A DNA stretch of 64,000 nt from Undaria pinnatifida (Eukaryota > Sar > Phaeophyceae > Laminariales > Alariaceae), in contig JABAKD010000002.1 of assembly GCA_012845835.1 (NCBI GenBank), forward strand, positions 6,876,603-6,940,602. Reading direction: 5' to 3'. The position numbers were made by a program, and so were the translations under genes. The notes below the pieces were generated by a model. The model was not told the origin of the DNA, made no database searches, and saw only the letters and a list, made by a program, of their open reading frames with translations. This document shows positions 1,879 to 62,400 of this stretch, one piece after another (position 1 is the first letter of the stretch; each line of letters starts with the position of its first letter).

Positions 1879-4800
1879 GTAGGGTTTTACGACTTGGCGC
1901 GGTCTTAAGATGTCCTCAAACTCCTTTTTACATCTCCAGTCAACGGGTCCAACAGACGGTCTCCTACGTGCGATAATGCCTTCGCTCACGAGACTCCACC
2001 CAGTCTTTAATTATATGGGCGGTTGCTCGTATTTTTTTCTGAGATGGCGCCACCAGACAAAAATAAAATACTGCCGAGGATAGACGAAAAAACATCAAAT
2101 TAAAGCCCCCTAATTTTTTTTTTTCCTAGACAGGGGGGTACTCTACAACCAACTGAAACTAACCATATCCAAAAAAACGGTATTCTCCCTCTTCGTTCAG
2201 TGGTCACAGCCCTCCGATTTGTTTTCTGTTCTCACTTGTGGGGGTGTGGTGTTCCGTTTTCTGTTTTTGTCGCGCGCGCTTGCCCCTGCTGTCTTTTTTT
2301 TGCGACGTGCAAACCCATTGGATACGCCATTCTGAAGTCTGGAGACAAATCCCTGGCGTTTGTGATCGCACACGAGATCAGCCACAGCTGGACCGGCAAC
2401 CTGGTCACCAACAGGTGAGGTGGCAGGGTGGGGTACAGTGATTACCGTGCGGTGAGTACATGGTTAGCGTACGGCTAGTACGGTGCTCACCGTACGGTTA
2501 GTACGGTGCTTACCGTACAGTCAGTGCGGTGCTTACCGTACAGTTAGTGCGGTGCTCACCGTGCGGTGGGTTTGATGCGTACTGTGCGTACAGTTTTTAC
2601 CGCACAGTGAGCACAGGTTTGCCGTACGGTCGGTACGATGCATGTGATGCAGTGAATACGGTGCTTTTCGCCAGACGAGTACGGTTCTTGCCGTACCACA
2701 GTAGGTAAGATGGTTACCGTACGGTGGGCACGGGTTTTTACCGTATAGTGAGTATGGTGCTTACCGTATGAGGAGTTCGGTGCGTGCCGTACACACGGTG
2801 AGTACGGTTCTTACCGTACGGTGAGTACGGTGCCTGCCGTACGGCGAGTACGGTGCTTGCCGTTGTGCTCACCGTACGATGACTACAGTGCTTACCGTTG
2901 AGTACGGTGATTCCCGTACGGTGAGTACGGTGCTTACCGCACGGTGAGTACGGTGCGTACTGTGCGGTGAGTACAGAGCTTACCGTACGATGAGTATGGT
3001 GTTTCCCGAAGGGTGAATACGTTGCGTACTGTACGGTGAGTACGGTGGTTACCGTACGGTGTTTACCACACGGTATCGACCACTCAATCGGTCGAACTCA
3101 CAGCTGACGTACTGCATTTTTGAACAATTTTGTAAAATGCAGGACATGGGAGCACTTCTGGCTCAACGAAGGGTGGACCATGTGGCTAGAGCGCAACATC
3201 ATGACGAAGGTAAGATAGACGAAACGCGCCGTGCGCGTTGGCCATGTGGAGCGACCGATGATATACGGCTTAATGTGGGTAGGTAGTGGGTAACCTTTTG
3301 CCAGCAGCTCAGTGGCCTAATGCCCTCTAACCCTTAACACCCCTCACTGTTCGCAGGGACTTGAATTGAGGAAACACCTGTTCAGCGTATGACACTCGAA
3401 GTAACTCTGTTCGTCCGCATTTCGTGAAAACAATGCCGCACGAATGGAGTTGGGGTCGGGGCGGGGGGCGGAACTATCTATGGTACCCGCACACACATAC
3501 ATGATTGTTGACCCCTCCCTCTCCCCCCCTCCTTCCCGCCCTACCTCCCGTACCCGCCTCCCTCAGGTCACTGGAGACCCGAACTATTTCGATTTCGACG
3601 CAATGCAGGGGTACCGCAGTCTAGAAGATAGCGTCGAGCTGTTCAGGTCTAGCGACGCCTTGGCGTTGACGAAGCTCATTCCTGACCTGGCGGGGGTGGA
3701 TCCCGACGACGCCTTCAGGTGATTATACTGTGCGGCGTGTTGACTCGCACCGATACATCTTAGGCAACAGACGGGGCATTGTTGTATTTGTTCTTCAAAT
3801 AGTTAATGGTGTTTTTGGCACTGTATTGGTTGTGTTTTTTGTTGGCAGTATGATTGATAGCTGCTGCTCCGCGCCATTTATGGTCACCATTGCGTGTGTT
3901 CGTTTTTTTTTCGTGGTTTACTTTGTTTTCTGTCGGGTTTTGCGCTGCGAACCAAAGCTCATTTCCAGTTGTGTATCTAACGCAAGCAGTCGCTGATTTT
4001 GATGCTGGGTCGGTGGGTCACCCTCCCTCCCTCCCTCCCTCCCTCCCTCCCTCCCAACCTTCTGCCCTGGGCTTAGTTCCCCGCCCCCTTCATATGCGCT
4101 CGCATGCGTTATCTGTTTCCCGCTTACCACGATGTTGCTGCTGCCACTACCTGAACAAGTCTGTTTCCTCTTTTTTTTCGCGTTTGTGCTATCGCCCCTC
4201 CCATGAAAAACTGTGTTTTCTTGCTCATATAACGTTATCCCTGGATATATACAATAGCTCCGTTCCCTACGAAAAGGGCTTCGCACTGCTGAACGAGCTA
4301 CAGAGGAGGGTGGGAGTAGAAGCCTTCCACGCCTTCGCCAAGGACTACATAGCGAAATTCAGGTCAGCTTGAATGAGGCGGTGGGGGAAAGGGGAGTTGG
4401 GGGGGCGTAATCATTTGTTGCTTGCCTTAGTCATTGGACCATTGATCACGCCTTGAAAACGGCCAGGTGTTATATAGGTCAGCTAGAATGAGGTGGTAGG
4501 CGGAAGGAGAGTGGAGTTGATGCTATGGTTGTCGAGGGGTGTATAGCTGCCAAGAGAAAGGAGTTCAGGTCAGCTTGAACGAGGTGGTGGGGGAAAGGGA
4601 AGTGGGTTTCATAAAATATTCTCAAGGGCTTAACTTGGTCAACGTCAGCTGTACATCGTGTCGGATATAGGTAATCTATTATTAGTAGGTGGTCTAGATC
4701 GTGATCTGTCCGATGTGTGGCCGTTGTCAGGCGGATCATGGTGGACTCTAGCGCCTTTGAGGGCGTTCTTTCGCCGTACAGTTGTGCACACACGCCTTGC

Positions 4801-7800
4801 CGGATGGGATCTGTACGATACGCGGCTCTTTCGCAGCATACCCGAAGAGTTCCCCACCGCCTTTTCGTGACGTCACCACTGTCAATGGACGTACGGGTAG
4901 GGCCGAGTATTGTCTCCGTGATGGCAGGACAATTTCCATCCGCCACACAGTGGGGAATAGCTGGCGGACAGTTGAGGCGGACAACCAATGGGTTGTTCCG
5001 TACAGCCCGTGGCTGTTGATGAAATATTCATGCGCCTTGTTTGTTATTTGCTCCAGGTCGTTGGCAAGCATAGTTCGTGTTGATCATACCGCAATATAAT
5101 TCTTGCTTTAGGCCGTACTCCGCAACCTGCGGGTAGTGGCCGTCAGAGTCCTGTGGGATACACGAGGTGAGCTCGTGGTGTAGTCTGTACCACCTTGGGA
5201 TATAAAGTAATAAATGCCGTGACTCGCCTCTGTGTCGAAAAAACGTGTTTGTAGCACGACAGGTGCACCGTCCCCAGAACACCTGCTCGCGCAATCTGAT
5301 CGCCTTTGCGTATAGCGCCTGGTTGAAGAATATCGTAATATTTTTTTTTTACACCAGGTCGCTGGCAAGCGTAGTGCGTGTCGATCAGACCGCAAAACTG
5401 TTCCTGCTTCAAGCTGTATTCGGCCACCTGCGGGTAGTGGCCTGCCAGCGACCTGGAGTGAATAATAAAGATGACGATAATTTTCAACCAGGCGCTGGTG
5501 ATCAGATTGTGCGAGCAGGTGTGACGGGGACGGTGCACCTGTCATGCTACAAACACGTTTTTACGACACAGAGGTGTGAGTCACGGCATTTGGTACTTTC
5601 TATCCTATGAACGAGTGGACCAGCTTTGTCGCCAGTCCCCACGCAGCAAGACAGGCTTTCCCGTCGAATGGACGATCGACGGGGGTCAAATCGCGAACGG
5701 TACGAGCAAGCGCTCCCACACCGAAGCGATGCGTTGATGGGATCTCATCCCACATGACTAATGAGCACTTGGCGCAATATCTCGGCGCGATCGTTACTTG
5801 CGGATGTATGGACACGTCACAACACACATCCCTCTATTGAGTCTCTCTTTTGGAGGCAATGGCAAAAGCTACGGCAGGGAGAGGGTATGTTATTTTTCAA
5901 TTGTTTTTTTTTTTTATAGTGCTCCGGGGGGTCACTCGCGCTAGTGAGCCCCCCGGTTCCTTGTTTGTGCTGTTCCAATTTTTCGATGTGAATCCCCAAC
6001 TGTGTGCTTAAGCTACGCTGCGCCAAACACAACACCATCTAACGTGTTTTTTTTTTTTCTTGTTAGGGAGGAAGAGTCACTCGTGCGAGTATGATAGCTC
6101 ACACCCGGTAGCGAAAGAAGGGTATATCATAGCATCCTGTGGACTTGGTCCAATCGGAACATAAGCGTGTGCCGTACGTCCGCTAGGGAGTCCGCACGCG
6201 GCGATGCCTGTGGTAGCCACGCAAATGCAAACGTGACCCAGTGGTTGCGATCCGGCCGAAAGTGCACTGAGCGCGTTGTGTCTTGAAGGTTCCCGCTGCG
6301 GCATCCGAAAGAAAACACGCGGGTGTTGTATCCAGTGACGCGTTGAAGGACCTCGTCGTATGTCGTGCGTTGCTCATGCGTGAGTCGAGGGTAGGTTTCG
6401 TAGGTGTACGCTGGTTCCCTGTTGGCGTCGTTGGTTTGGCGCCGTCGCTCGTACTCAGTGAGGCGATGATGAGTCGTGGGTGGCCCCAAGGAACTGGCCG
6501 TTTTTCCATATCATTTGCAACATTGCGTCTATATGTTCCAGAGCTCGAGTAAGGGCAACGTGTTCTGCGACCCCTTGGAAGTCTTCCGTGAGGTCTCCGA
6601 GAAACTCCGTCCATATTCGCAAGAGTGGGGCACCAACCAGGCACACGTTGTTTGCCCAAGCGCGAAGCGCCGTGAGGTGTTCGGCGTGTCGCATGAAGGG
6701 TGAACTTCATCCATCCAAGAATCGCTCGTAAGACGGACTTCGGCACCTTGTGCCTACCTTCTTGCTTATGGATGGCAGCGCCAATGGGTTACTTTGTTTT
6801 CTGGTGTGGCCACTCCAGAGACGGCAAAGGATATTGCTATGTTTCTGCCTCGTGGGTGGCTTACCATATTCACACTACGTGATGCGATCATTCCCCTTGT
6901 GCGGAGTTAGGGTTCTCTACCGCGCACAATACAATCTAACTCGATAACTATAGCGGTGACCGCCAGAAAATAACGAGAGAAAGAAAGGGTAACGTGGGGG
7001 GGGGGGGGCATTTTGATGCGTAGCTGTAATCTGTAAGACCTATAGACCTTTCGCGTCCCTACAATGCCGGGACGGAGGGGGGGACAGGGGAGGAGAGCTG
7101 GAAGATGGGAGGGGGGATACGGATGGCTGGGTAAGTCGGTCGGTGGGGGTAGTTGTAGTGGTACGGAGGGATTTCTGAACCGGGGACGGGGGCCCTATCC
7201 TCCCCGGGTTTCGCTCGCTCTACGCGCCCCAGCCAATCAGCCATCGGCCCGTGGGATTGGGGTTTCCACACCGTGCAGGGCGGTGTCGACCCGCGAGAAC
7301 TCTCGATTTTCGTGCCCGGGGTGTCGGAGTTGGAGAAATATGGAAGGATGTTTGAATCGGGGATGGGATCCAATCCTCCCTGGGTGCGGTGGGACTGGGA
7401 GGGGTTGCCCCGAAGGACAACTCCCGCCGCGCGTGCCTCGCCCCCTGATTGGGTGAGCGCTGGTGGGGGGGGGGGAATCCTCGGCCAATGGGATTGGGGC
7501 TCGGAAAACGCAGGAATGAAAGCCATATGCCTATTGCATTTTATATTCGTAGGATGCAGATGATCTACTGTAGATCTCGATCTGTGCGCGATCTGTGAGC
7601 ATGTTTTGTCATCAGGCGGGGCACGGTAGACTCTTTCGAGTTCAAGGCTTTATTTTTGGCGGCGAAGTTGTGCTTGCGCACGTGATTCTCGGGCGGTATC
7701 TGTACGATACGCACCCTTGCACGACATACTCCAGTACAAACAGCAAGGATAGGATCTAGAAGATCTAGAGGATCTATTGGATCTAGATCGCGATCTGTCG

Positions 7801-10800
7801 GACGAGTGAAGAGGTCGGTTGTCTGGCGGGACGCGGTGGAATCGATCGAGTTCAAAGCTTTCTTTCGCGGCACAAGTTGTGTGCACGTGTTTTTGCCGGG
7901 TGGGAACTACACGACACGGCTCTTGCGCAAGATATATATTTCTCCTACAGAAAATACAGGATGTAGTCGATCTAGATCGCGACGTGTGCCATGGTTGAGT
8001 ATGTTGGGGGTGTCGGGCGGGGCACGGTGGAATCTGACACCTAGCTATTACTAATTGTAGGCTATTCACCTCGGTATAGTTGCGCGTGCGCACGTTTGCC
8101 AGCTGGGAACTGTACGATACGGCTCTTGCACAACATAGTATACCAGCAAGGATAGGATCTAGATGATCTGTTTGACATAGATCGTGACCTGTGTGGTATG
8201 TGCGTGTGTCGTTTGTCAACAGGCGGGGCACGGTGGACTCTTTCGAGTTCAAGGCTTTCTTTCTCGGAAAGTTTGCGGACAAGACGGAGGAGATGGAGGG
8301 ATTCGACTGGAACGCATGGTGAGCGATATATGGCATTTTTTTTCCTGGGGGGGGGGTTGTTTTTTGTATCGTCACTTTTGCTTACCAGCTCAACTCGTAA
8401 AAGGTTTAGGTTTTACCCTCAACGACCTTCTGACTAAGCCGTGGTTGCAAATGCCTCCCCTTTTCCCCCCCGATGCGTGCATTAGTTTTTGTCGGTTTGG
8501 TTCGATGCGGCATCGTAACGTAACGCAAATGTAACGTAACGTGACGTGATGTAACGCACGGTAAGGTCACGGTAAGGTCAGGTCAGGTAAGATACGGTAA
8601 GGCAAGGGTTTGGGTTGGTTTGGTTTTGTTTGGTTTGGTTTTGTTTTGTTTGGTTTGGTTTTAGTTTGGTTTGGTTTGGTTTGGTTTGGTTCTGGTTTGG
8701 TTTTGGTTTGGTTTGGTTTTGGTTTGGTTTTGGTGTGGTTTGGTTTGGTTTGGTGTGTTTTGGTGTGGTTTGGAATGGTTTGGTTTGGTTTGAATTGGTT
8801 TAGCTTGACTTGGCGTGGTTTTGGTCTGGTCTGGTCTTGTGCGGCTCTGTCCGGTCCGATTCGGTCCAGTTCGGTTCGGTTCGGTTCGGTTCAATTCGGT
8901 TCGGTTCGGTTCGGTTCGGTTCGGTTCAATTCGGTTCGGTTCGGTTCGGTTCGGTTCGGTTCGGTTCGGTTGTTTCGGTTCGGTTCGGTTCGGTTCGGTT
9001 CGGTTCGGTTCGGTTCGGTTCGGTTCGGTTCGGTTCGGTTCGGTTCGGTTTGGTTCGGTTCGGTTCGGTTCGGTTCGGTTCGGTTCGGTTCGGTTCGGTT
9101 CGGTTCGGTTCGGTTCGGTTCGGTTCGGTTCGGTTCGGTTCGGTTCGGTTCGGTTCGGTTCGGCTCGGCTCGGCTCGGCTCGGCTCGGGTCGGGTCGGAT
9201 CGGGTCGGTTCGGTCCGGTCCGGTCCGGTCCGGTCCGGTCCGGTCCGGTTCGGTTCGGTCCTTTGCAGGGGGTTGGACGAGTAGAGGCCCCTTGCGTCGT
9301 ACCCTGTTTGGCTGTTCTCTTTGTGATGGGCACTTTATTCCTCATTTTCTGTTTTATTTGTACCGTTGAAGGTTTTACGACGCTGGTATGCCGGCGGAAA
9401 CGCCGACGTTCAACACTACCCTCTGCGAGGAAAGTCAAGCCCTGGCAGATAAGTGGGCGGCGGCGGCAGCGGAGGAGGGGGAGCTGGCAGATCCCGAGGA
9501 GGCAAAATTTGCGGCGTGGCCATCGCCCCAGAAGGTATTGAGATTGCCTGCTGGTCGCTATGGTATCGCGCCCGCTTCTCGTATAAAGTTTGTCGTGTTA
9601 ATGATGCCGCGCGACTATTTTCGTGTGAATCTTGTGTTGATCTTCTCGCATGAATCTTGCCTTGTGAATCTTGTGGTATAAATCTTGTTGTATGAATCTA
9701 GCGGTATAAATCTTGCATTGCCGCCAAAGCTACGTTCGTGGCGTTGCACTCAGACGAGAACCGCCAAAGCTACAGCAAGCGTAGCCGTTGTTGTCAAACG
9801 TGGTCGATACCACGGGCTGCTGCCATCGTATGGTACACGCTGCTGCCGGGCGGAGCTAGGAATGTGCCGCGTTGACTAGCGGCGAGAAGCAGCAGCAGTG
9901 ATAGCAGCCAAGCCACCATTGGCGCTGTTGTATGATCCTCGTATGTGGTACCTGGTATGGGTGTGTGGATGCGTGTGTTTTTGTGGTGGGATGAGCGACG
10001 CGATGGGTAATGATTTCGATTGAGCGATCAGTTTCGCACATCCAATCGAATCGACTGGATGTGCGGGTCGAATCGCTCAGTTGAAAAAAAATGAGTCGAA
10101 GAAGCTCCCTTTCAACTGTGTAAGAAAACCCGATTTGGTCTTAAGTCGAAACATCGATTCGACTGGATGTGCGAGTCGAATCGTTCAGTCGAAAAAATGA
10201 GTTGAAAATGCTCCTCTTTGTGTAAGAAATCCCAATTTAGTCTTGAGTCTTGAGTCGAAAACGATCTTTTTCGACTGTGTAAGAAGCCTGATTTGGTCTT
10301 CAGTCGAAAAGGCCCTTTTTCGACTGACGGATACAACTGTACAATAGTTGGCCCAAGTCAAGTTACAAGTAGTTGTTTTCCAACGGCCGCCCAACCGTTA
10401 AATATTGCATTTGTAGTTCTACGGTTTCAGGCACTGGTCGGCCGATGTTTGGGTTTCCTATGATATGGGGGAGGCGTACTCATTTGTTGCTTGCCTTAGT
10501 CATGTGACTATTGACCACGCATCCCTTTCGAGGGTTGGCATGGGGAAGGGTTATTGACGTGCCTCGATTCTCCCGGAAGTGGGTGGCCTGCCTACCGAAG
10601 GCAGTCGCTGATGCTAATTCGATGCGACTCGGGTGGTGTGATACAACAATACCGCCCGTATATCTGGCCGAGGGGAGTGCCTGATGAAAAGGTACGGCTC
10701 ACTGGTGTGTGTATGCGGAGCTTTTGTGACTGCGGTGCAACTTCTCCTTGTTCTGCGTGTGTACCAGGGTCTGTGACGGAAAGGCACCACCTTTTTCCCG

Positions 10801-13672
10801 CAAAAGTTCTGGATTATTGTATAAAATCAAGTATAGAAATCGAGGAATTTGGTTTGGCCCACGTGTGCTTCCAGTATTATAAGACGGAAAATACAATGAA
10901 GAAAATCTTGCCTAAAACTCTACTTTTGACCCTTTAACCCCATAACCTCAAGCCCATAAAAATTTGTCCGGAAAATGGGCCGACATTTGCTTGTTTGTTT
11001 TTTGTTGTTGAAAATTTGGTCGACCACATTTAAACCCATATGTGAAAATTTGGCGCGATTTGCATGCTCTGTCCTAGATAATAATCTAGATGTCTCGTTA
11101 AGGCTGCTGGAAAGGTACGACTCGCGTGTGTTTTGAGTGGTGGCACGGTGCTATCTTCTTGAGCTCTCTTCGACGATCATGGTGTGACCGCGCGTGTACA
11201 GAAGTGCATGCGTTCAATGGCGGCGATTCAAAGGGAACACAGTATTAGTAAGAGCTACCCGTGAACTCCAGGCTTGTTTCACAGCCCTGCCAAGTTTTTG
11301 TCAACGCCGCGTGTTGGCATGGCGGTATGATAGTCGTGATTGAAACACCAGTTGCTCTAACGTTTTTTCCTTGGCTTCAGGTGACCTTTCTGCAGCGGCT
11401 GCTGGATCAGTTGGAAAAGCTTGGGGGATCCTACCCACTGCCGCTCATCCAGGTAGGCATCGTACCGGTACCGGCGAGGATCCTAATACATACACGAAAA
11501 TCATCATTGCCACCCCGACAGTAGTGGGTGCACAAAAACTCAAAATTGGCGACACCTCACTTTTTTGGTGGGGGGAGGGGGCGCAGACAAGGGGGTATAC
11601 TATCAATAAAACTAAGTGAAAACACCCTGAAAAAAACGCCGTTGTTAGAAATCGTGCAGAAAATGCCAACAATCCGGTTCGTTTTTTCGAACTATCCATA
11701 CCCTTTAGAGGACTGTGGCATCGTTTCCTGTTTTTGTCGTGTTCCCCTTACCCCACTACAAATTTTCCGGGCACCTATTAGGAAGCGGCGGGGTACCAGG
11801 AGCCTGTCTTGTGACCACGGACTATGTTACAGGATGGGGATTGGTTACCGTGAGGACAACAACAACCATAACGAATTTAACGCGTCCAGCCTTCGTTTCT
11901 TTTTGTCCCTGCATGCAGACCGGCGAACATTTTGCGCACTATTTCCCCGTCATAATAACACACGCAGAAACAAGCAAACACCCTGCCAGGTAATGGAATA
12001 CTCGGTAGTGTGGTTCCCGGGCAATCGTGTTATACACCCACCACCGTTATGACCTACTGTTGCGTCGCACGAGCGCAGGCGATGGACAAGGCGTACGGCC
12101 TGACCAAGACTGGGAACTCCGAGGTCCGTTTCTGCTGGCACAAGTTGTGCCTGCGCTCCAAAGCTCTGTTCATCGTGCCGCACGTGCTGGACTTTGTGAC
12201 CTCCATGGTGAGAAAGGGATCAGACAAAGGGTAGGACGAGTGATACGGTGGGTCCGGGGTAGCACCATGTGGGGTACGCAGAGAAGCGGTTACCCTCTCC
12301 TGTGTACCTTTGTGTGTAGCGTACATGCCTACGTATCAGTCGTAAACTCATCACGCCCGTGTAGCGTTGCATGTCTACATACCAGTACTAAAACTCTCAC
12401 CTCTACACCTTTGTGTAGCGTACATGCCTACGTATCAGTCGTAAGCTCATCACGCCCGTGTAGCGTTGCATGTCTACATACCAGTACTAAAACTCTCACC
12501 TCTACACCTGTGTGTAGCGTACATGCCTACGTATCAGTCGTAAACTCATCACGCCCGTGTAGCGTTGCATGTCTACATACCAGTACTAAAACTCGCTGTT
12601 AAAAGAGCTCCTAGTCTTCTTTTTTTGGCATCGTGCGTCGTGTCGCACGTGCTGGACTTCGTCACCCGCACGATGAAGGGACGGGGGTCAGACGCATGTT
12701 ACGGTCTGAGGGTAGCATAATCTCTCGCTTGGAGGGGTGCAGCAGATTATTAAGGATTTTCTGAGCTTCTAACATGAGGAGCTAGCTCGATACCAACATC
12801 ACCACCCGAAACACGACTTCGAAGACACTCGTTCGCTAGCAACCCAATCAAACATAGTGATGCGCTACAGTGGTCCTAAATCAAATGTACTCGATAAATT
12901 TTCGTTATACTAAGCTCAACCGGTCGGGATCGTTTGGCCCAAAAAGTGGAAACCCCTTTTTTATTTTTTATTTTTTTTCACACGCATCTACTTCCCAGCT
13001 TCTTCTGGACAAGCCGTGGTCACAGGTGTCGTCCCTTTCTCCCCCCCCGGTTCTTGCCTTCAATTTTTATCGCGCATAGGGTTTAGCAATCCCACTGCTC
13101 GTCGATTTTTCATCGAGTGTTGCTAACTCACGCTGTCGCGCTTTCCGCAAGTCAATTTGTGCACAAGAAAAAGCCCTACCGTGAGATGAGTCACTCTGGA
13201 GTTCCTACAGTAAAACTGAGGTACTCGTAAAATTACTTGATTATTGACTAACCAGTAGTTCCTCACTTGAGTAGCTCAACCGATCAGGTATACCTTTTTT
13301 TGGCTAAAAAAGTGCAATCCCTGCCGTGGAATGACTCACTCTGGAGTTCCTGAACGTTCGGAGGCATCTTGCCTGAGGAGCTCTGTATCTCTCACACCCA
13401 AAAACTCTCTTTCGAGAAAATAGAAATAAAACAGTAGTAGCTATGCGACACGCGCGCAGGAGGCAGGCATCATGACACCGCCGGCTCCGGTTTTCGTTTC
13501 GCAGGGGCGCATGAAGTTCACCCGGCCGCTGTACCGCGAGCTGTTTGCCCTGGAAGATACGCGGTCAATGGCCGTCGACACCTTCAAGGGCCGCGCCTTG
13601 TTCTACCACCCCATCTGTCGGTCCATGGTGGCCAAAGATCTCGGGGTGGAACTAGGCAAGACGGGCAAATGA
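1769..13672 (+). CDS. LTA4H: Leukotriene A4 hydrolase-like M1 aminopeptidase (5' part missing)
   Basis: Predicted join: 1769-1878, 2338-2414, 3143-3209, 3567-3718, 4258-4362, 8223-8318, 9372-9534, 11381-11452, 12079-12207, 13505-13672; reading phases agree at every junction and give 378 residues. The family are cytosolic zinc enzymes that remove N-terminal residues from peptides and, in vertebrates, hydrolyse leukotriene A4. Visible marks are HEISH at 2371-2385, the third zinc ligand in LNEGW exactly 18 residues later, VPYEKG with the proton-donor Tyr, the GRMKFTRPL carboxylate-binding segment and the family C-terminal helical domain. Two differences from the animal enzyme stand out. The Tyr modified by leukotriene A4 is Phe, and the exopeptidase motif GGMEN reads GGMKK. 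The N-terminal saddle domain is outside the window or unrecognised. Introns reach 3.9 kb and are full of repeats. Family assignment is secure; whether this copy is fully active is open. Confidence 0.93.
2338..2414 (+). CDS. LTA4H: LTA4H-like exon b: HEISH zinc-binding motif
   Basis: Starts at the first AG after a T-rich tract and ends AACAG/GTGAGG in phase 2. It reads SGDKSLAFVIAHEISHSW and ends in GNLVTN. The two His residues are zinc ligands and the Glu is the general base. Confidence 0.92.
2430..3065. repeat. Degenerate minisatellite in intron, units resembling 5' splice sites
   Basis: About 25 imperfect units of roughly 22-28 bp built from ACCGTACGGTGAGTACGGTG. It fills nearly all of the intron between exons b and c. 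Most units contain CGGTGAGTA, a strong 5' splice-site look-alike, and the palindrome CCGTACGG. Confidence 0.9.
3143..3209 (+). CDS. LTA4H: LTA4H-like exon c: third zinc ligand
   Basis: Acceptor AAAATGCAG, donor ACGAAG/GTAAGA. It reads TWEHFWLNEGWTMWLERN. The Glu of NEGW lies 18 residues after the second His of HEISH, the standard M1 spacing. Confidence 0.93.
3567..3718 (+). CDS. LTA4H: LTA4H-like exon d
   Basis: Acceptor CCTCCCTCAG, donor TTCAG/GTGATT in phase 2. It ends in VDPDDAF. The Asp matching animal Asp375 is present. The last full codon, Phe, stands where animal enzymes carry Tyr378. Confidence 0.92.
4021..4052. repeat. (CCCT)n polypyrimidine tract
   Basis: Eight CCCT units in a row inside the intron before exon e. 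Confidence 0.9.
4258..4362 (+). CDS. LTA4H: LTA4H-like exon e: VPYEKG active-site Tyr
   Basis: Acceptor ACAATAG, donor TTCAG/GTCAGC in phase 2. SSVPYEKGFALL contains the Tyr equivalent to Tyr383, the proton donor in peptide hydrolysis. The donor and following intron are copied twice just downstream (about 4470-4515 and 4560-4610). Confidence 0.92.
4400..4465 (+). repeat. Dispersed repeat R8, copy 1
   Basis: Contains TCATTTGTTGCTTGCCTTAG and GACCATTGATCACGC. A close copy is at 10462-10535 in a later intron of the same gene. Confidence 0.6.
4470..4610 (+). repeat. Two echoes of the exon e donor junction
   Basis: The string TTCAGGTCAGCTTGAATGAG across the real junction (4359-4378) is repeated as ATAGGTCAGCTAGAATGAG near 4475 and as TTCAGGTCAGCTTGAACGAG near 4565. 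The following GGTGGGGGAAAGGG stretch is also repeated. These are decayed copies of the exon end plus intron start. Confidence 0.8.
4692..4850 (+). repeat. Echo of exon f acceptor junction (most distant copy)
   Basis: A GATCGTGATCTGTCCGATGT leader is followed by GTTGTCAG and GCGGATCATGGTGGACTCTA, then GGGATCTGTACGATACG. The part after GTCAG matches the start of exon f at 8223 with several substitutions. It lies 3.5 kb upstream of the real exon. Confidence 0.75.
5040..5610. repeat. Compound fold-back element
   Basis: Sequence at about 5205-5335 returns as its reverse complement at about 5475-5600 (for example TGTTTGTAGCACGACAGGTG against CACCTGTCATGCTACAAACA). The arms are about 125 bp around a loop of about 140 bp. 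Inside lies a second inverted pair on GGTCGCTGGCAAGC/GCCTGCCAGCGACC. A direct copy of the loop sequence precedes the left arm at 5050-5150. No coding region is seen. Confidence 0.85.
5840..6130 (+). repeat. Dispersed repeat R6, copy 1, with hairpin
   Basis: Contains a near-perfect hairpin at 5923-5957 (CCGGGGGGTCACT ... AGTGAGCCCCCCGG) and a second GTCACTCGTGCGAGT palindrome near 6074. Related copies at 33360-33600 and 38505-38745 share the palindrome, the CACGCTGCGCC or TCCGCAATGG stretch and an ACCCGGTAGCGAAA end. Confidence 0.65.
6131..7059. other. Intron sequence without recognised features
   Basis: Unique-looking sequence inside the long intron between exons e and f. Open frames on both strands overlap each other and carry no family motif. 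A G-homopolymer lies near 7000-7010. Confidence 0.4.
7060..7560 (-). repeat. Dispersed repeat R5, long copy
   Basis: GC-rich block with two internal sub-copies (GAACCGGGGACGGGGGCCC and GAATCGGGGATGGGATCC). Its right end, read in reverse, matches 54640-54845: AATAGGCATATGGCTTT, CGAGCCCCAATCCCATTGGC, CCAATCAGGGGGCGAGGC. It is likely an old dispersed element. Confidence 0.7.
7571..8222 (+). repeat. Three tandem echoes of the exon f acceptor junction
   Basis: Units of about 190-210 bp begin near 7576, 7780 and 7967, ahead of the intact one near 8177. Each has a GATCGCGATCTGT-type leader, a version of GGCGGGGCACGGTGGACTCT and, in the fuller units, TTCGAGTTCAAGGCTTT followed by GGGATCTGTACGATACGGC. 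Similarity covers the intron end and the first 40 or so bases of exon f. The AG acceptor survives only at 7614-7615. Confidence 0.85.
8223..8318 (+). CDS. LTA4H: LTA4H-like exon f
   Basis: Acceptor GTCAACAG, donor GCATG/GTGAGC. It reads GTVDSFEFKAFF and ends GFDWNAW, matching the segment that links the catalytic and C-terminal domains. Its first half is repeated in decayed form four times upstream in the same intron. Confidence 0.88.
8395..8500 (-). repeat. Diverged copy of SINE-like family R3
   Basis: ACTAAGCCGTGGTTGCAAAT and the C-rich run followed by TTTTTGTCGG match 12985-13085, with many changes. Confidence 0.5.
8605..9256. repeat. Pentanucleotide array (TTTGG)n to (TTCGG)n
   Basis: About 225 bp of imperfect TTTGG units pass into about 300 bp of almost perfect TTCGG units (near 8860-9165). 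Short blocks of CTCGG, GTCGG and TCCGG end it. It fills most of the intron between exons f and g. The open frames across it are artefacts of the repeat. Confidence 0.97.
9372..9534 (+). CDS. LTA4H: LTA4H-like exon g
   Basis: Starts GTTTTACGACGC after GTTGAAG and ends CCAGAAG/GTATTG in phase 0. FYDAGMPAETPTFNT matches the family's LYSPGLPPIKPNYDM region, followed by an Ala/Glu-rich helix. Confidence 0.87.
9590..9720. repeat. Short minisatellite, GAATCTTG units
   Basis: About seven units of 15-20 bp containing GAATCTTG or AAATCTTG in the intron after exon g. Confidence 0.7.
10030..10335. repeat. Tandem repeat, TCGACTGGATGTGCG units
   Basis: About two and a half units of 100-120 bp. Each carries ATTCGACTGGATGTGCG, a TCAGTCGAAAAAATGAGT stretch and a TGTGTAAGAA/TTTGGTCTT pair. 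Intronic. Confidence 0.8.
10462..10535 (+). repeat. Dispersed repeat R8, copy 2
   Basis: Matches 4400-4465: TCATTTGTTGCTTGCCTTAG, GACTATTGACCACGC. Confidence 0.6.
11381..11452 (+). CDS. LTA4H: LTA4H-like exon h
   Basis: Acceptor TTGGCTTCAG, donor ATCCAG/GTAGGC; 24 codons in phase 0. VTFLQRLLDQLEKLGG is a helix of the C-terminal domain. Confidence 0.87.
12079..12207 (+). CDS. LTA4H: LTA4H-like exon i
   Basis: Acceptor GAGCGCAG, donor TCCATG/GTGAGA; 43 codons in phase 0. TGNSEVRFCWHKLCLRSK matches the family NNSEIRFRW stretch. Its 3' end is echoed downstream at 12633-12695. Confidence 0.92.
12306..12595. repeat. 99-bp tandem repeat, three copies
   Basis: GTACATGCCTACGTATCAGT recurs at 12321, 12420 and 12519, a strict 99-bp period. 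The copies are nearly identical, so the array is recent. It lies in the last intron of the aminopeptidase gene. Confidence 0.95.
12633..12695 (+). repeat. Echo of the exon i donor junction
   Basis: GTCGCACGTGCTGGACTTCG and the following AAGGGACGGGGGTCAGAC repeat the end of exon i and its intron start (12175-12235) with scattered changes. The donor GT is lost. It lies about 450 bp downstream of the true exon. Confidence 0.85.
12725..12960 (+). repeat. Dispersed repeat R7, copy 1
   Basis: Starts AGGGGTGCAGCAGATT, includes ATGAGGAGCTAGCTCGATA and ends near CTCAACCGGTCGGGATC. Other copies lie at 13200-13440, 31600-31700 and 39430-39720, with reversed copies at 38750-38890 and 39115-39270. Confidence 0.75.
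12985..13180 (-). repeat. SINE-like family R3, reversed copy
   Basis: Reverse complement of 42560-42750: TTCTGGACAAGCCGTGGTCA, CGGTTCTTGCCTTCAATTTT, ATCGAGTGTTGCTAACTCAC. The tRNA-like head seen at 42460-42535 is not present here, so this copy is 5' truncated. Confidence 0.8.
13505..13672 (+). CDS. LTA4H: LTA4H-like terminal exon with stop
   Basis: Acceptor TTTCGCAG. It begins GRMKFTRPLYREL, where the Arg and Lys bind the substrate carboxylate in the animal enzyme, and ends MVAKDLGVELGKTGK followed by TGA. Length and end agree with the family C-terminus. Confidence 0.94.
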   Translation, partial: GRMKFTRPLYRELFALEDTRSMAVDTFKGRALFYHPICRSMVAKDLGVELGKTGK

Positions 13673-17384: not shown

Positions 17385-17605
17385 GTTACAGGTGTCCCGT
17401 ACAGTACTCGTCGACAAGAAAGCGCAGCCATTGGCGGCGGGCGAGTCGTTTTGCATCAGCGTTTCCCCTTAGTATTTGACGACGGGACGGGCATCGTTCA
17501 CCGTACAGTACTCGTCTACAAGAAACCGCAGGCATTGGCGGCGGGCGAGTCGTTTTACATCAGCGTTTTTCCTTAGCATTTGACGACGGAACGGGCATCG
17601 TTGCC
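17385..17605 (+). repeat. 104-bp tandem duplication with a conserved open frame
   Basis: ACAGTACTCGTC recurs at 17401 and 17505. Both copies are open in the same local frame, reading TVLV(D/Y)KK(A/P)Q(P/A)LAAGESF and ending ISV(S/F)P before TAG. A CAG acceptor-like site precedes the first copy. It may be a duplicated terminal exon, but no family is recognised. Confidence 0.7.
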
Positions 17606-17833
17606 GTTGTATTTAGCCGGCGAAGAGCGATTTTTCCCTCCTTGTGAGTGATGGAGCAAACCTCATTTTTTTTGCGGACGTGCTATGCCTGCCCCGCTGT
17701 TCCCCCGTCCCACCCCCCTGGCATACCGGAAGCTAAAGATGCGCGCCATAACGCAGTATTTGCAACCCGCGCCTGGGAATAAACATTCAAAATTATCCGT
17801 AGGTCGCCCTTGCTTTCCTGTAGTGATTGCGGC

Positions 17834-17838
17834 TAACT
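17834..17838. other. Target site duplication TAACT (left)
   Basis: TAACT precedes the left LTR and recurs at 26053-26057 after the right LTR. This marks a 5-bp duplication, as expected for Ty3/gypsy integration. Confidence 0.85.
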
Positions 17839-18258
17839 ATTATGGAAGGGGAGGCTAGGGATAGAGGCGGATCCGATGTCTATGTGGGTCTGAGTGGTCT
17901 CTAGCCATTCATGCGGCAGGACCCTAGGTTTTGTGTGCATTGTACAGAGAGAAAGGTGCCAGGGACCCAGCCTACAAAGCACTGCTACCAACCTGATGAT
18001 AGCAGCCTCCCGATCGGTACCGAGTTCGGTGGTTGAGCCTGAACAGCGGTAGTGTGAGCCTTGAAGGTGGCTTATGAGAAGGAGTAGAAGGTCTCCGGTC
18101 GTGGATACGGTATTCGCTTTGTGGATTATTGCTAACTCAGGGCAAGCAAAGGAGTACAGAGCAGAGGGAGGCGAGGAACCAGTACTGCTAGTACCTATTG
18201 AGACTAACGCATTCCCAAAAGTGCAACTCCTATCAACCGTAACAATGTAACCGTAACA
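17839..18258 (-). repeat. 3' LTR of the retrotransposon
   Basis: 420 bp, nearly identical to 25633-26052. On the - strand it begins TGTTACGGTTACATTG and ends CCTTCCATAAT. Seen differences from the other LTR are T/C near 17842 and A/G near 17948. Confidence 0.95.
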
Positions 18259-18268
18259 TCCCCCCATT
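18259..18268 (-). other. Polypurine tract
   Basis: AATGGGGGGA on the - strand, directly upstream of the 3' LTR; the expected plus-strand primer site. Confidence 0.75.
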
Positions 18269-24278: not shown

Positions 24279-24389
24279 TCATAAACAATGATGCGAGCGA
24301 GCGCGACGAAAAAAATGAAGCGGGAACAGCAGTTGCGAGGCGGCAAGAATCGCACGGAGGAAAATAGGTGTTGAAAAAAAAATATAAAT

Positions 24390-25621: not shown

Positions 25622-25632
25622 GAGGACACCAT
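25622..25632 (-). other. Putative primer-binding site
   Basis: On the - strand the 5' LTR end is followed by ATGGTGTCCTC. TGG matches the complement of the CCA end of a tRNA. The tRNA is not identified. Confidence 0.55.
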
Positions 25633-26052: not shown

Positions 26053-26057
26053 TAACT
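26053..26057. other. Target site duplication TAACT (right)
   Basis: Matches 17834-17838. Confidence 0.85.
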
Positions 26058-51515: not shown

Positions 51516-51544
51516 AAACTACTGCCGAAAGCGCTTCGTAGCGC

Positions 51545-54845: not shown

Positions 54846-54849
54846 GTCA

Positions 54850-56165: not shown

Positions 56166-56461
56166 GTGCCGACGGACTCGGCGGAAGAGGTGGGGATGGA
56201 AAAACATCTGCCCCGACCCTAGCCCCTGTAATACGCCTCCTCTCTTCGGACGTTTTGACGGAGGCGTGTTGCTTGCTGGACGCGAAATCGCTGGCGACGG
56301 CTGCATCGACGTGCCGCTCTTTCCGTGACGTGTGTCAGGGGCGCTACCCCTGGAGGGGTGCCTGCTTGAGGGAGTGGGGTTTGCAAGAGGAGAGAAGCGG
56401 TGATGGAGGGGGAGGAAGGAGAGGCGGGGAAGTTGGAGCAGAGGGTGGGGGTTCTGCAAAG
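56166..56461 (+). CDS. F-box exon 1
   Basis: Acceptor GAGAGCAG, donor GCAAAG/GTGAGA, phase 0 at the end. It holds the whole F-box. The predicted start leaves two bases of a split codon, so a coding exon precedes it. A 79-bp direct copy of its last part plus the donor follows at 56500-56575. Confidence 0.82.
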
Positions 56462-59400
56462 GTGAGAGAAGGAGAGGGCGGGCAGTAGTAGAGGGAGGAG
56501 AGGCGGGGAAGTTGGAGCAGAGGGTGGGGGTTCTGCAACGGTGAGAGAAGGAGAGGGCGGGCAGTAGTAATGTAACAATGCCTGCCGCGCAACCCTAGCC
56601 CAACAGAGACTGCAGTGTATGGTGTTGGCAAACATCACGACAGTTAGCACGTACTTCACCTTTTGATATATCGCGCCTCTCGACCACGTTTTTCTTTTTC
56701 ACTAAATCTTCTCGATTTTGCCTTTTGCCTTTTTCTTGTATTGTGCACACCGCTACCGACGGTGTGGCTTTGGAAATTTGGTCGGTGTCTCTGGCGGTCG
56801 GTTGCAGAATTTGGTGGCATCGGTTTATCGACTTCGCTTCGAGGACTCAATTCTGGACGGAGACTTCCGCAAAATTTTCCCCATGATCGAAGGGGTTCCT
56901 TGGGGCTTCGACTGCGCCCCTCTTCGAACCGTCGCTGCTACTGTGGGTGATGGTGGCGTTGGCGGCCTGGGGAATGATGGTGGTGATGGTGCCGGTAACG
57001 GCAACAATAATGACGGAAATGTCAACAATGGTGGTGGTGGTGGTGGCGGCGACGATGGTGCTCATTTCAATGGCATCGGTAACGGCATTGGCGGCGATAA
57101 CGACGACGTCAACAACAACGAGGACGCTGGCGATAACGCTGACGTGAACGACAACGCTGGTGGAAACGACGCCAATGATGGTGCTAACGACAACGATGAC
57201 GTTGCTGCCAACCACGACTACTACAACAATCACATCCACAACAACAATCAAGACGACAACCACATTAACAACCACAACGTCGGCCAACCGAGACACGGGG
57301 AGGACGGCACGGCAGCAGCACCAGCGGCGGCGGCGGTAGCAGAAACAGCAGCAGCAGAATTAGCAGCAGCAGAGTTAGCAGCAGCAGTAGCAGCAGCAGA
57401 AGCAGCAGTGGCAGCAGGAGAAGAGCAGGAAGAAGAAGTTGGGGATTTTTACATCAAGGGCTTGCGACGACCGGAAGCATTAGAAGCAGGAAGCGGTCGG
57501 ATGACTGACAAGCGGCCTCGTGCTTCTCAAGACGCAGCTCGGCAGGTTTGCACTAGACACGACATAAAATTTCTTTAGGTTTGGCTTGGTTAAGATTGGT
57601 CCGATTCAGCTCCGTTCAATTCTATTTGGCACGGCTCCGTTCAGTTCGTTCCGTTCCCCCACCGCCACCACTACTACAATAATAAAACAGGTGTGGAGTT
57701 CCCCGCCACCACCATACTAAACTAAAACAAGTGGAGTTCCGCGGAGGCCTGTCCCTGCCCCCCCCCCTCACTACCCCTCACCAACCCCCCTCTCCCCCCT
57801 GACCAACCCCCCCACCCCCCTCATCAACTGCCCCTCCCCCCTCACCAACTCCTCATCACCCCTCACCAACCCCCCGTCTCCCCCCCGCCCTCCCTCCTCT
57901 TGCCGACCCCCCCCCCCCCCCGCCCCGATGTCAACAGGTGGAGTTCCACGGAGGCCTAGGCCTCGGGAATAGGTGCGTTCGCGCAGACCTCCCGCTTCCG
58001 AGCACCATCCTAAGCGAGCGCGGGGGACTAGGGGCTAAGTCACACCACGCTAGGCACCCGGAGATGTCTCCCTTGGCCTTGTTCCGGTGGCTTTTGGCGA
58101 AAATGGCGGCTACCGCTAGTGGTGGTGGTTGTGGGAGGGGCGGTGCTAGGGGCGGGGGTGGTGGTGGAGGCGGAGGTGGAGGGGGTATGTGGACTTGGCA
58201 GCAGCAGGAGGAGGCGGGAGGAGTTGGGGGGGGGGGTGAGCAGCAGGAAGGAGAGGGTGGGGGATGGGTAGGGAGCAGGACTCACGAAGACGACGGGTTT
58301 GTCGGTGGCCCTTGGGGGGAGCGTCTGGAGCGGGCGTCATCGATGCCGAGCTCGGGGGGTGGCGGTGGCTACAGCCGAAGGGCGCCAGCGGGGGGTCCCG
58401 AGAAGCCGCTCCCGCGAGCCATGTGTTTCCCCGTGGCGTTGGGAGGGGGCGCTTACGATGTTACTCCGAGGCTCGTCAGCTACTTTGAGGTAGGGACGCG
58501 TCGGATTGGAGCTGCTGTGGTTGTTGGCTTCGGTGGTGGTATTGGGTGGGTTTGGTGGTGGTGTTGGCGTTGTTGTTGTCGCTTTCCAGGGGGAGGCGGG
58601 TGAACGGACAAGAAAGACAAGCACGGAGATACAGTAGTAAGAGCTTTCTAATTGGAGTTTACTATTGTGCATCCCTTTTTTTTGGTCGCTGTTGTTGGTG
58701 GTGAAGGTGGTGGTGCCCGCGGTGGTACTGAAGGTGTTGGTGCCGGTGCTGGTGAACTTGCGTTGTTGTTGTTGCGTCAACCTAGTCCGCGGTCATTTGA
58801 CAGGCTCCAAACGTCCTGGACCAGGACATAATAAGTACAACCACCATGAAGAAATTTAAATAGCTTGTAAACACTCCATCAAAGCCGAAAATTGGTTCTC
58901 CCCTTTCCCCTCCCCCGCGCTTGGTGCAAGCAACGCCTGCCTGGTCGGTGAAAAGCCGACGTGCTTCGTCCCGGTGCTATAAGGATGCGTATAGTATTGA
59001 GGACTACAGCTATACATGGTATGGTATGATTACAAACCCCCCTCCCTCTGCGCCTTACTCCCCAGGTTACCATCAGCGCGCCTCGCGTGGACCCACCGCA
59101 CGCCATCCCGGACTGTGTCGCCATCGGCCTCAGCGAGGGCAGCTTCCCCTTGCAGGGCAAGATGCCCGGCTGGGACTCGGCTTCGTACGGCTACCACAGC
59201 GACGATGGGGGGGCTTTCCACGACGCCGGAAGCATGCTATTCAAGTGAGTGTTGTTGGTGGTTGTTTTGTTGTTGTCGTTGTTGCTGCTCTTACCTGTGT
59301 TGCTCTACCCACAAAACGAAAAATGAAATACAACCTGTAACGCCAAATATTCTTGAAACCGGGGTCTTGTCGAAAGCAGTCCCCACACTGGGTCATTCAG

Positions 59401-62400
59401 CGTTCTGCGCTCTTTCACAGGCGCCGTGCTCCCCGCTGAAGCCGTCAATGACACACCCCGCCCGTAGGAACCCCGCCAAGTTATGATATTGTCTGATCTG
59501 TAGTTGGCATGGCGTTTGTTTTTTTAGAAATGGACAAACCCGGTGCGCCGCGGCCATGTAGTGTATCTTTTGCGCAGTTGCTACGTACGCTCCCAGCAGT
59601 CACGACGCCAGCTTAGGCATTTTTCGCCGTCACTGCCGTGGTGTTGAATGTTGATGAAATCGCCCAAGATTCGCCGTGTGCTCGTCTCTACAGGAAGGGA
59701 AGGTATTCCAACTTGGTGGGATTTGTGGTTTATTTCACCGACGCCGCATTCGCTATAGACGTGCGCCTCAAAAATCAACGAAATGTGGACAAAAAACACT
59801 GCGTTGTAGTGTAGTAGTGCTAGATCACAGCTTTTTTTTCCGACAAAAATTACACGTAAATATGATGCGTCCGGGAACTGATCATCGCTTAGCAGTAACA
59901 ATAACTTGGCCACGGTATGACAAAGAGAAAATCCATCGACCTGGAACCACATTTTCAAACTTGAGCGACACTGTCGCGGTGCTTTCAGGTCACCAAAACT
60001 GCTGCCGCTTTGCCACACTGTAGTGAAAGCACCTAAGACCCCATCGCGGGGTGGTGTGATTTCCGATTAGCTGTTGCGCCGGAGTTATGGCAGAACTGCG
60101 GAATATCATGCACATATATTACAGTGGTAGAGGTGGTTCCAGAGCTGTATTTCGGCATAGTTTGGCCCCAATCTTTTTTTTTTCGTGGGCAGAGCAACAC
60201 AGGTGTGTTGCTACTGTTGTGTTTGGTTTTTGGTCGGAATCTGAGATGTCGTGGGCGATGCCTTTCTCCCCACACCCCACTTCCTTTCCCACACCAACCC
60301 CCACTCTCACATGGGTAATGTACAGACGATGCGTGCGTGCACAGCAGTTCTTGAGAACAGCGTAGCAAAGTATCCTTTCGAGTACTGTTGGGAATTAGGT
60401 GGCGTTTGTCAGGGGCTTCCGTCACTATATGGTTGGACGACGGCCGGTCTGGTAGTGGTACCCCGCCCCAGGACCCAACCCACCCCAACTCCCACCAATG
60501 TGAATACACCGGCGACGAACAGGTGTGGGCCTTCTTTCGGCCCGGGCGACGTGGTAGGGTGTGGCTTGGACTACAGCGTGGGCGACGACTGTGCCGACAT
60601 TTTCTTCACGCTCAATGGAAGGTGTGCTCCGGTATTCACGCCTGCCTCCGATTTTTTGGCAAGACCATTTCCTGAATCTCGGGGATTATTTAACTCCTTT
60701 ATGACTGGGAACCCGTTTTGGGGAACAAATAACTTGGAATTAGTACAGGGAGGTGTTTTTGGGGTTCTAAACGGGTTACAACCCGATATCGCTATAACCC
60801 AATATCGCTGGAATGTCATGTTTCTATTGTTTTTTCTTTCTTTCGCTTTATATCTCAGGAATGTCTTTTTTCTGTTGCGTTTTCTTTCTTTCGCTCTATA
60901 TCTAGGCCATGAGATGTGTTGATCGCCTTACGCTTTTTTCTCTTTTTTTTTTCATCCTCCGGCGGATGGGGAAAAATGAAAAGCTTAAGCTCTCGCCACG
61001 CTTCCACGTATTTTCATATACCCAATGTCGCTCGAATGTCATTTTTTTATTATTAATTTTTTTAAATCGTTTTATAGCTAGGCCATGAGATGTGTTCATC
61101 GCCTTACACTTTTTTCTTCTTTTTTTTCCCTCCGGCGGATGGGGAAAAATGAAGAGCTTGAGCTCACCACGCTTCCACGTATCTTCTTGCACGCCGCCGT
61201 GTATCGATTTAACTCAATTGCTTTCGCAATCCAGCGCTAGCTGGCGTGTCCTTCGGTTCTAGCGATATTTTTTTTCTTGTGATGAGTTTTTGCCTCAGTA
61301 GAAAAAGATATCTACTCAAGCGCGGAGTTCAGAAAAATGTTGTTGCACGTCTGCAATATCATAGCATGTGTCTGGTATATGCGGTACAGATTACCCCGCT
61401 TGCCGGGTTGGGATCTGTTTAGTACGGGTTTTGGCACGCTCCATCTCAGGCATATACACGATCTGGATGATCTAGATCGTGGTCTATGTATCCGAGGTGT
61501 GCGGCTATTTGATGGGGCTCTGGGAGCGGCGGTTCGTAGCGCGAGACTCGCCCCACCGTTTCGGTGCGTTCTGTAGCATACAGCAACTGCGGGATTTAGG
61601 TTGTCTAGGTCGTGGCCTACCGGATTTGTGCGACAATTTGATATCTCTTGAGAGCCGACTTTGGTGTCGTAATGGGGTTCCTTCTATCTACTCTACTGTC
61701 CTTCTGGAAGACTCGACGAATATATCTACAATGCGGCCAATGTCTACGCCCACAACTTGCTAACCTTGGGACGAAGTACGTATAGTAGCTACTATTATTA
61801 TTGATAACTTTTAGTAGGAGTTATATACGTTGATGGGATAATCTGTGAAGTCGAGCGGCCGGTGTATCACGCAGCTTGCAAAGATGAGTATCGGCCCTAA
61901 ATTTGTCGAACTCACAGCTGATGTATTTACCTGGTATATTCTTTTTATACAATATGTCTGCGCCAAGTAGACGATCTAGATGATGTGCTATCTGTTATAT
62001 CGTGATCCTGTCGTCAATAGATGAAAGTAGTGACCTGTCCGATATGTGCGACCATACCATACAGGTCTCTGGGAGCGGCCTTTCGTGGCGTGAGGGGATC
62101 CTTCTATCCTACGGTCGGCATAGATTCCGCCTGTCCTGTGAGGATTAACTTCGGTGCCGAGCCGTTCGTGTTTGACCTGGCTGCTTCTCTCCGGGAAGGA
62201 GGACAGGAGGCCTCGGCTCGCCAGGTGAGTGAACGGGTGTGCTGGGGGTGGGGTGGGGCGTGAGGTTTATTTTGGAGAAGAATGGTGGTGGTGGTGGTTG
62301 GTAGTAATGATGATAGTTTTTCATTGTAGTTTTTTTTTTTCCTCCGGCGGACGGGGAAAAACGAAGCTTAAGCTCACCATCATGGTATTACTTTGAGTAA

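What the first reader, a model, noticed from the sequence alone, without database searches (positions are those of the whole stretch)
4258..62224. Junction echoes: exon borders copied repeatedly into the adjacent intron, with strict polarity, in all three genes
Decayed copies of short segments spanning an exon border occur beside at least nine exons. They are aminopeptidase exons e, f and i; PIH1 exons 1, 2, 3 and 7; and F-box exons 1, 3 and 6. Every copy of an exon 5' end lies upstream of that exon, and every copy of an exon 3' end lies downstream. Each copy includes both exon and intron bases. This polarity is what repeated tandem duplication across splice junctions would give, with only the innermost border staying functional. 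It would lengthen introns, supply spare splice sites and leave pseudo-exons. I know of no named mechanism matching this.
Basis: partly seen in the sequence, partly recalled or inferred. Interest (0 to 1): 0.88.

Follow-up and report, generated by a model that had tools for sequence, protein, structure and literature searches.

The report
Half-exon tandem duplications in kelp introns
In this brown-alga genome about a third of the exons tested have a decayed copy of one of their ends in the neighbouring intron, most likely leftovers of ordinary tandem DNA duplications that started or stopped inside an exon; they are not clearly commoner at exons than elsewhere, but they may keep supplying spare splice sites and false exons.

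Summary
The echoes are real. Of 60 exons (26 of the three genes, 34 dynein heavy-chain exon matches taken elsewhere without looking for repeats) 21 have a same-strand copy of one end within 5 kb and 0 an opposite-strand copy; 34 of 34 matches have the stated polarity. Residual similarity runs outward into the intron (z>2 in 18 of 34) and rarely inward into the exon (2 of 34), as a tandem duplication with one breakpoint inside the exon would leave. The freshest case is an abutting 79-bp duplication, 97% identical, across the predicted donor of the F-box-domain exon. But exon ends are not a visible hot spot: non-exon segments of the same loci have same-strand copies about as often (181 of 600 against 21 of 60, Fisher p=0.46), and 16% of 19 arbitrarily placed 10-kb pieces lies in local direct repeats. 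I infer that selection makes the polarity: a joint inside an exon, or a whole extra exon, would alter the mRNA. Precedents are in print (PMC4974935, PMC2671141). So: a known mutational class at high density with a clear filter, not a new junction-copying mechanism.

The parts
1787..1863 (+). echo of the 3' end of aminopeptidase exon A5 (true exon upstream of the window, L009:9213-9411), 2441 bp downstream, 83% over 77 bp; reads like an exon
4258..4362 (+). aminopeptidase exon E
   Evidence: protein relatives
4476..4512 (+). echo of exon E 3' border, 115 bp downstream; AG|GTCAGC retained
4564..4606 (+). echo of exon E 3' border, 206 bp downstream, 91% over 43 bp
4693..4835 (+). far copy of the exon F border unit in the same intron (70% to 7782-7929); not matched by exon F itself at score 32
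7550..7711 (+). echo unit of exon F 5' border (CAG|GCGGGGCACGGT retained), about 607 bp upstream
7766..7918 (+). echo unit of exon F 5' border, about 394 bp upstream
7955..8150 (+). echo unit of exon F 5' border, 206 bp upstream
8223..8318 (+). aminopeptidase exon F; its first codons are conserved in Ectocarpus
12079..12207 (+). aminopeptidase exon I
12638..12693 (+). echo of exon I 3' border, 465 bp downstream, 77%
43919..44008 (-). PIH1 gene exon P2
44132..44189 (-). echo of P2 5' end, 178 bp upstream, 84%
43670..43769 (-). echo of P2 3' end with intron bases, about 213 bp downstream, 75%
42157..42390 (-). PIH1 gene exon P3, apparent GC donor (CAG|GCAAGC)
43091..43193 (-). echo of the 5' half of P3, 819 bp upstream, 75%
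41806..41878 (-). echo of P3 3' border, 342 bp downstream, 81%; GC retained
41562..41585 (-). echo of P3 3' border, 591 bp downstream, 88% over 24 bp
41272..41330 (-). echo of P3 3' border, 871 bp downstream, 77%
38121..38303 (-). PIH1 gene exon P4
37882..38016 (-). echo of P4 3' part and intron start, 227 bp downstream, 74% over 135 bp
37717..37768 (-). echo of P4 3' part, 413 bp downstream, 79%
56166..56461 (+). F-box-domain exon F2 (5' border read from the sequence; 3' border predicted at CAAAG|GTGAGAG; neither confirmed by a relative)
56412..56569 (+). abutting 79-bp tandem duplication, 97.5% identical, crossing the predicted F2 donor; the freshest event
62065..62224 (+). F-box gene exon F7 (SPRY-type end)
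61609..61688 (+). echo of F7 5' border, 418 bp upstream, 74%
61515..61545 (+). echo of F7 5' end, 549 bp upstream, 84% over 31 bp

Best explanation
The echoes are the surviving fraction of a genome-wide process of local tandem duplication of segments of roughly 80 to 800 bp. When a duplicated segment has one end inside an exon and the other in the intron, the exon stays intact next to one copy of its border and the second copy falls inside the intron, on the side of the border that was copied. The intron copy is not needed and decays; the exon copy is held by selection on the protein, so the exon part stays recognisable longest. Segments whose joint would fall inside the exon, or which would add a whole exon with both splice sites, are removed by selection, and that gives the strict polarity. 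Several copies at one border (exons F, P3, E) mean repeated duplication. Shown: the copies, orientation, polarity, mostly outward extension, a rate not distinguishable from intron DNA, one fresh abutting case, and no sign that the F and P3 border sequences are dispersed repeats. Inferred: the molecular step (break repair with fill-in synthesis, or slippage), selection as the filter, and that the copies are unspliced.
For:: 21 of 60 exons with a same-strand copy, 0 of 60 opposite; 34 of 34 matches polar, against 227 of 390 in non-exon controls; outward residual similarity z>2 in 18 of 34, inward 2 of 34, while 199 control pairs are symmetric (40% and 36%). The 34 dynein exons came from a family search, without looking for repeats: 11 of 34, 15 of 15 polar; 79-bp abutting duplication across the predicted F2 donor; no match covers a whole exon although about 6.5 of 24 exon-side events should if breakpoints were random (P about 9e-5; about 5.7 and 6e-4, my arithmetic, if the distant A5 case is left out); no full copy of the exon F or P3 border elsewhere in the genome at that sensitivity; exon F's first codons are conserved in Ectocarpus, so the exon is the source; rate like that of introns; the 377 local pairs thin out steeply with distance.
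Against: 12 of 30 echoes have outward z below 1.5, including those 2441 and 877 bp away, so a plain tandem duplication is not visible in every case; later insertions (such as the repeat-bearing stretch between P3 and its first echo) or spaced repair copies may explain these. Matches at one exon are not independent (34 matches at 21 exons), and one match (L035 exon at 4874) lies almost wholly in the flank and has inward z 4.1. Exons show no inverted copies where controls show 60 of 600 (p=0.004), so the intron background holds repeat types that exons lack and the similar rate may hide a modest excess at exons. No comparison with a sister species was possible, so no event is dated.
Confidence: 0.84

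Rival explanations
1. A process aimed at splice junctions (for instance coupled to splicing, R-loops or transcription) copies exon borders into the adjacent intron.
For: Several borders carry two to four copies; polarity is perfect; the same-minus-opposite difference is larger at exons (21-0 of 60) than in controls (181-60 of 600).
Against: Borders and exons are hit at about the rate of intron DNA of the same loci; 19 pieces from elsewhere are as full of local direct repeats; polarity follows from tandem geometry plus selection.
Confidence: 0.07
2. Repair-mediated duplication: a short piece of nearby DNA is copied into a break a few hundred bases away, as described in vertebrates (PMC2671141), without the copies abutting.
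For: Some echoes are short and show no similarity beyond the matched stretch (A5, E, L030 exon 1); some pairs elsewhere are spaced, such as L016 954-1042 and 1243-1331.
Against: Copies should then land on either side of the exon; 34 of 34 matches are on one side. About half of the echoes extend outward towards their source and 2 of 34 inward.
Confidence: 0.12
3. The echoes are copies of a dispersed repeat or mobile element that happens to include the exon ends, or an exonised element.
For: The genome is repeat-rich and exon F sits at the end of a roughly 200-bp repeat unit. Searches missed known diverged own-intron copies (8010 and 4740 for F; 41272 for P3), so they would also miss diverged copies elsewhere.
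Against:: besides the query itself only two own-intron copies and one match elsewhere, to query bases 4-70, which stop short of the border; 96 further matches, all within query bases 74-231, an intron stretch, none at the border or the echo bases (40 of 82 candidates scored). The exon F coding start is conserved in Ectocarpus.
Confidence: 0.04
4. Chance matches or low-complexity sequence picked out by eye.
For: One counted match (F4 5') is a polypyrimidine stretch with many matches elsewhere; the G-rich intron part of exon E's border also has five weak matches of 19-30 bp in 190 kb.
Against: 0 of 60 exons match on the opposite strand against 21 of 60 on the same strand; dinucleotide shuffles give about one local match of score 30 or more where the window gives 167.
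Confidence: 0.01

Closest known systems
Tandem genomic duplication crossing an intron-exon boundary, potato RdRp gene (Ma, Lan and Niu 2016, PMC4974935; abstract seen)
   Same: A duplicated segment that spans an intron-exon boundary, splice signals copied with it.
   Different: There a new intron arose; here the copies lie inside existing introns, decay, and occur at about a third of the exons tested.
Repair-mediated duplications in vertebrates (Pace et al. 2009, PMC2671141; abstract and passages seen)
   Same: Closely linked duplications of up to 619 bp; some donors are partial exon plus intron.
   Different: That data set leaves out copies within 50 bp of the template, includes an inverted exon copy, and has 4 of 824 donors of the partial exon/intron type; here same strand only and polar.
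Small tandem duplications from break fill-in by CST and Pol alpha-primase (PMC8355091; abstract seen)
   Same: A named route to small tandem duplications.
   Different: Shown in human and mouse cells; not tested in brown algae, and whether it reaches 80-800 bp was not checked.
Duplicated donor elements in [D] stwintrons of Lipomyces (PMC7138796; abstract seen)
   Same: Proposed duplication of an intron donor element leaving two donors in one intervening sequence.
   Different: There both donors can be used in stepwise splicing; use of the echoes here is unknown.
Short paired duplications and tandem-duplication insertions in mammals (Thomas et al. 2004; Messer and Arndt 2007; seen only as reference-list entries)
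   Same: By their titles, local paired or tandem short duplications as a general mutation class.
   Different: Not read; no claim is made about exon borders in them.

Membership tests
local tandem duplication | copies on the same strand | tested here: met
   21 of 60 exons same strand, 0 of 60 opposite
local tandem duplication | copies abut, or similarity runs from one copy to the other | tested here: inconclusive
   met exactly for F2 (spacing = length = 79); outward z>2 in 18 of 34 echoes; not seen in the rest
local tandem duplication | one breakpoint inside the exon, similarity not continuing inward | tested here: met
   inward z>2 in 2 of 34
junction-targeted copying | excess at exon borders over intron DNA | tested here: not met
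   8 of 40 borders against 15-23% of intron positions; 21 of 60 exons against 181 of 600 segments, p=0.46; modest excess not excluded
repair-mediated (spaced) duplication | copy inserted away from its source, on either side and in either orientation | tested here: not met
   34 of 34 on one side, 0 of 60 exons with an inverted copy
dispersed mobile element or introner | many copies across the genome | tested here: not met
   two borders tested; the searches miss diverged copies
intron gain by tandem duplication | new intron spliced at the duplicated site | not testable with these tools
   no RNA data available

The most novel reading that the evidence does not exclude
In this brown alga local tandem duplication is so frequent that about a third of coding exons carry at least one decayed half-exon in the next intron. 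That would make tandem duplication across exon borders a main source of intron growth, decoy splice sites and pseudo-exons in a long-intron lineage, held in check by strong selection that removes duplications whose joint falls in an exon or that add a whole exon.
Probability: 0.5. Interest if true: 0.62.

Novelty: new variant of a known kind. Interest (0 to 1): 0.45.

Why it matters
The copies are a readable record of duplications that hit exons, with selection visible in what is missing: whole-exon copies and wrong-side copies. They give a direct way to measure how often decoy splice sites arise next to real ones. It has been proposed that species with many large introns need stronger exonic splicing signals because of decoys, and Ectocarpus is one of the examples discussed (PMC4476162, passages seen). 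They also mislead gene finding: I took the A5 echo for the true exon until the upstream sequence was fetched.

Tried and rejected
Rejected: chance; dispersed repeat for two borders (with the sensitivity limits stated); junction hot spot. Dropped before counting: exon P8 (terminal exon, 36-score match at its 3' end), and the aminopeptidase echo at 1798-1851, which I had first listed as exon A_A. Kept although probably chance: F4 (polypyrimidine); without it 20 of 60 exons and 33 of 33 matches. In one search F2 was entered with a 3' end 72 nt short, so its fresh tandem copy is not among the 34. The dynein exons are family-profile matches, so their borders are approximate, and 5 of the 34 have a stop codon inside the match. 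One search treated 1798-1851 as an exon, which only shields it from the intron control. In one search the letters L and R are chromosome sides, not gene sides, for minus-strand genes. Control polarity is above one half in the window genes (169 of 270) and even in the dynein loci (58 of 120). The 19 pieces were placed by me at round coordinates of contigs seen, not drawn at random, and one holds 2680 N. My notebook says 21 same-strand matches; the answer lists 20. On rechecking I changed '13 of 30' to 12 of 30 in the evidence against, and moved two odds by 0.01 because miss known diverged copies. I found no published account of half-exon echoes in brown algae in the listings of searches, of a library that lacks most subscription journals; this is weak evidence.
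Full report
What the window is. The window is G000:C26:6876603-6940602 of a 511-Mb genome in 68 contigs. Its proteins match Laminaria digitata (86% over about 58 residues) and Ectocarpus (57-80%), so it is a brown alga, probably a kelp; the size resembles Undaria, which is recall and not from a call. Three genes were mapped: an LTA4H-type M1 aminopeptidase (+), whose first exons lie upstream of the window in L009; a PIH1 gene (-) with exons P1-P8, mapped with an Ectocarpus relative; and an F-box/SPRY gene (+), with exon F1 at 46667 on the strength of one Laminaria relative.

Is the observation there? Yes, with corrections. A self-comparison (window without 17601-26199, distance up to 2 kb) finds 167 same-strand matches of score 30 or more, where dinucleotide shuffles give about one. 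Exon plus 30-bp flank searched against 5 kb on either side, for 27 exons, gives 20 same-strand matches and no opposite-strand match. Every upstream match covers the 5' part of its exon and every downstream match the 3' part; none covers a whole exon. The A5 echo (about 1787-1863, 83% over 77 bp) reads so well as an exon that I used it as one until one search showed the true exon 2.4 kb upstream.

Replicate taken without looking for repeats. A Dynein_C family search gave 51 exon-sized matches across the genome. I fetched seven clusters, chosen for exons per base, holding 34 of them (5 of the 34 with a stop inside the match; borders approximate). Result: 11 of 34 exons have same-strand copies, 0 of 34 opposite-strand copies, and 15 of 15 matches have the same polarity. 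Together with 26 exons of the three genes: 21 of 60 exons, 0 of 60, and 34 of 34 matches. One of the 21 (F4, polypyrimidine) is probably chance. Seventeen matches were not examined.

Is it more than background? Not detectably. Of 600 non-exon segments of similar length in the same loci 181 have a same-strand copy (30%; exons 35%; Fisher p=0.46) and 60 an opposite-strand copy (10%; exons none; p=0.004). An earlier run in the window genes alone gave 115 of 300 and 33 of 300 against 11 of 27 exons. By borders, 8 of 40 are crossed by a local direct repeat, against 15% of non-array and 23% of all intron positions. In 19 arbitrarily placed 10-kb pieces 16.3% of bases lie in direct repeats within 1.5 kb and 5.0% in inverted ones. 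Local direct duplication is therefore widespread in the genome and exon borders take their share. Two biases cut opposite ways: exon copies are easier to see because one copy is held by selection, and the intron background holds repeat types, as the inverted matches show, that exons lack. A modest excess or deficit at exons is not excluded.

Why the polarity? A tandem duplication with one end inside an exon leaves a copy of that exon end in the intron, on the matching side. If the joint fell inside the exon instead, the message would be broken. Copies pasted at a distance would land on either side. The extension test separates these: beyond the matched stretch, source and copy still resemble each other outward into the intron in 18 of 34 cases (z>2; 14 with z>3) and inward in 2 of 34 (1 with z>3); in 199 control pairs the two directions are alike (40% and 36%). 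In a first run 12 of 30 echoes showed no outward similarity to speak of (z<1.5). The F-box-domain exon F2 shows the process fresh: 79 bp duplicated with no gap, two mismatches, across its predicted donor. Reading on through the first donor meets a stop codon soon after, so the first copy is presumably the one used. At exon F four copies of a unit of about 200 bp, which appear to share one joint, lie upstream (alignment; three of them match exon F itself); at P3 four copies of the border follow downstream (three matched, the fourth is only about 20 bases). With random breakpoints about 6.5 of 24 exon-side events should hold a whole exon; none does (P about 9e-5; about 6e-4 without the distant A5 case, my arithmetic). 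I infer that selection removes them.

Are the echoes dispersed repeats? Not the two tested, within limits. The exon F border query finds itself, two of its own-intron copies and one match on another contig to query bases 4-70, which stop short of the border. The 411-bp P3 query finds 97 matches (40 of 82 candidates scored); all but the query itself fall in query positions 74-231, an intron stretch with telomere-like repeats between the border and the first echo. That repeat stretch may also explain why the tandem connection is not visible there. Both searches miss known diverged copies in the same intron, so diverged copies elsewhere cannot be excluded. In the 19 pieces the border probes had no long match; short weak matches were seen for E (five, 19-30 bp, G-rich intron part), F, P2 and P4, and many for the polypyrimidine F4 probe. 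Exon F's first codons are conserved in Ectocarpus, so the exon is the source and not the copy.

Spare splice sites. By reading the sequences the splice dinucleotide is still present in 10 of 16 echo borders: E 2 of 2, F 2 of 4, P2 5' 1 of 1, P2 3' 0 of 1, P3 4 of 4 (GC), A5 0 of 1, I 0 of 1, P4 0 of 1, F2 1 of 1. The F7 and A2 echoes were not read for this.

What is known. Tandem duplication across an intron-exon boundary is described in potato (PMC4974935, abstract). Repair-mediated local duplications in vertebrates include donors of the partial exon/intron type, 4 of 824 (PMC2671141, abstract and passages). A route to small tandem duplications by break fill-in is described in mammalian cells (PMC8355091, abstract). 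Donor duplication is proposed for stwintrons (PMC7138796, abstract). [quoted passage not shown] I found no account of frequent half-exon copies in brown algae in the listings of searches, which is weak evidence of absence.

Verdict. What is unusual is the density, and the clean picture of selection that it gives. Whether the density is unusual among eukaryotes could not be measured here, since no other eukaryotic genome was at hand.

Noticed in passing
17838-26053: LTR-flanked element: two 422-bp direct terminal repeats, 99.5% identical; 41 matches genome-wide to a 1-kb internal piece, itself included, a lower bound.
   Followed up: partly
42157 (-) and L009:7490: Two introns (after PIH1 exon P3 and aminopeptidase exon A3) appear to start with GC instead of GT.
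   Followed up: no
46026-46667: PIH1 and F-box genes are head to head, about 640 bp between start codons; the first F-box-gene intron would be about 9.4 kb, on the strength of one relative.
   Followed up: no
8607-9259 and 29073-29287: Long 5-bp arrays (GGTTT/CGGTT in an aminopeptidase intron; ACCCA elsewhere); also a 26-bp array at 32279-32954 with 99% matches and a 23/46-bp array at 2433-3060.
   Followed up: no
41985-42095: Intron stretch with a telomere-like GGGTTGGGGTTA core; related stretches at no fewer than 38 other places in the genome by my count.
   Followed up: no
L016:954-1331 and L016:1835-2514: Spaced direct repeats (98% over 89 bp, 289 bp apart; 95% over 221 bp, 463 bp apart) that do not abut; may be small terminal-repeat elements or repair copies.
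   Followed up: no
377 local pairs in the window (without 17601-26300) plus 20 fetched 10-kb pieces: Spacing of local direct repeats is densest at 90-120 bp with a second rise at 180-240 bp; cause unknown, arrays included.
   Followed up: no
10-kb pieces L010-L028: Local direct-repeat cover ranges from 0.3% to 39% between pieces; the piece at 0.3% holds 2680 N.
   Followed up: no
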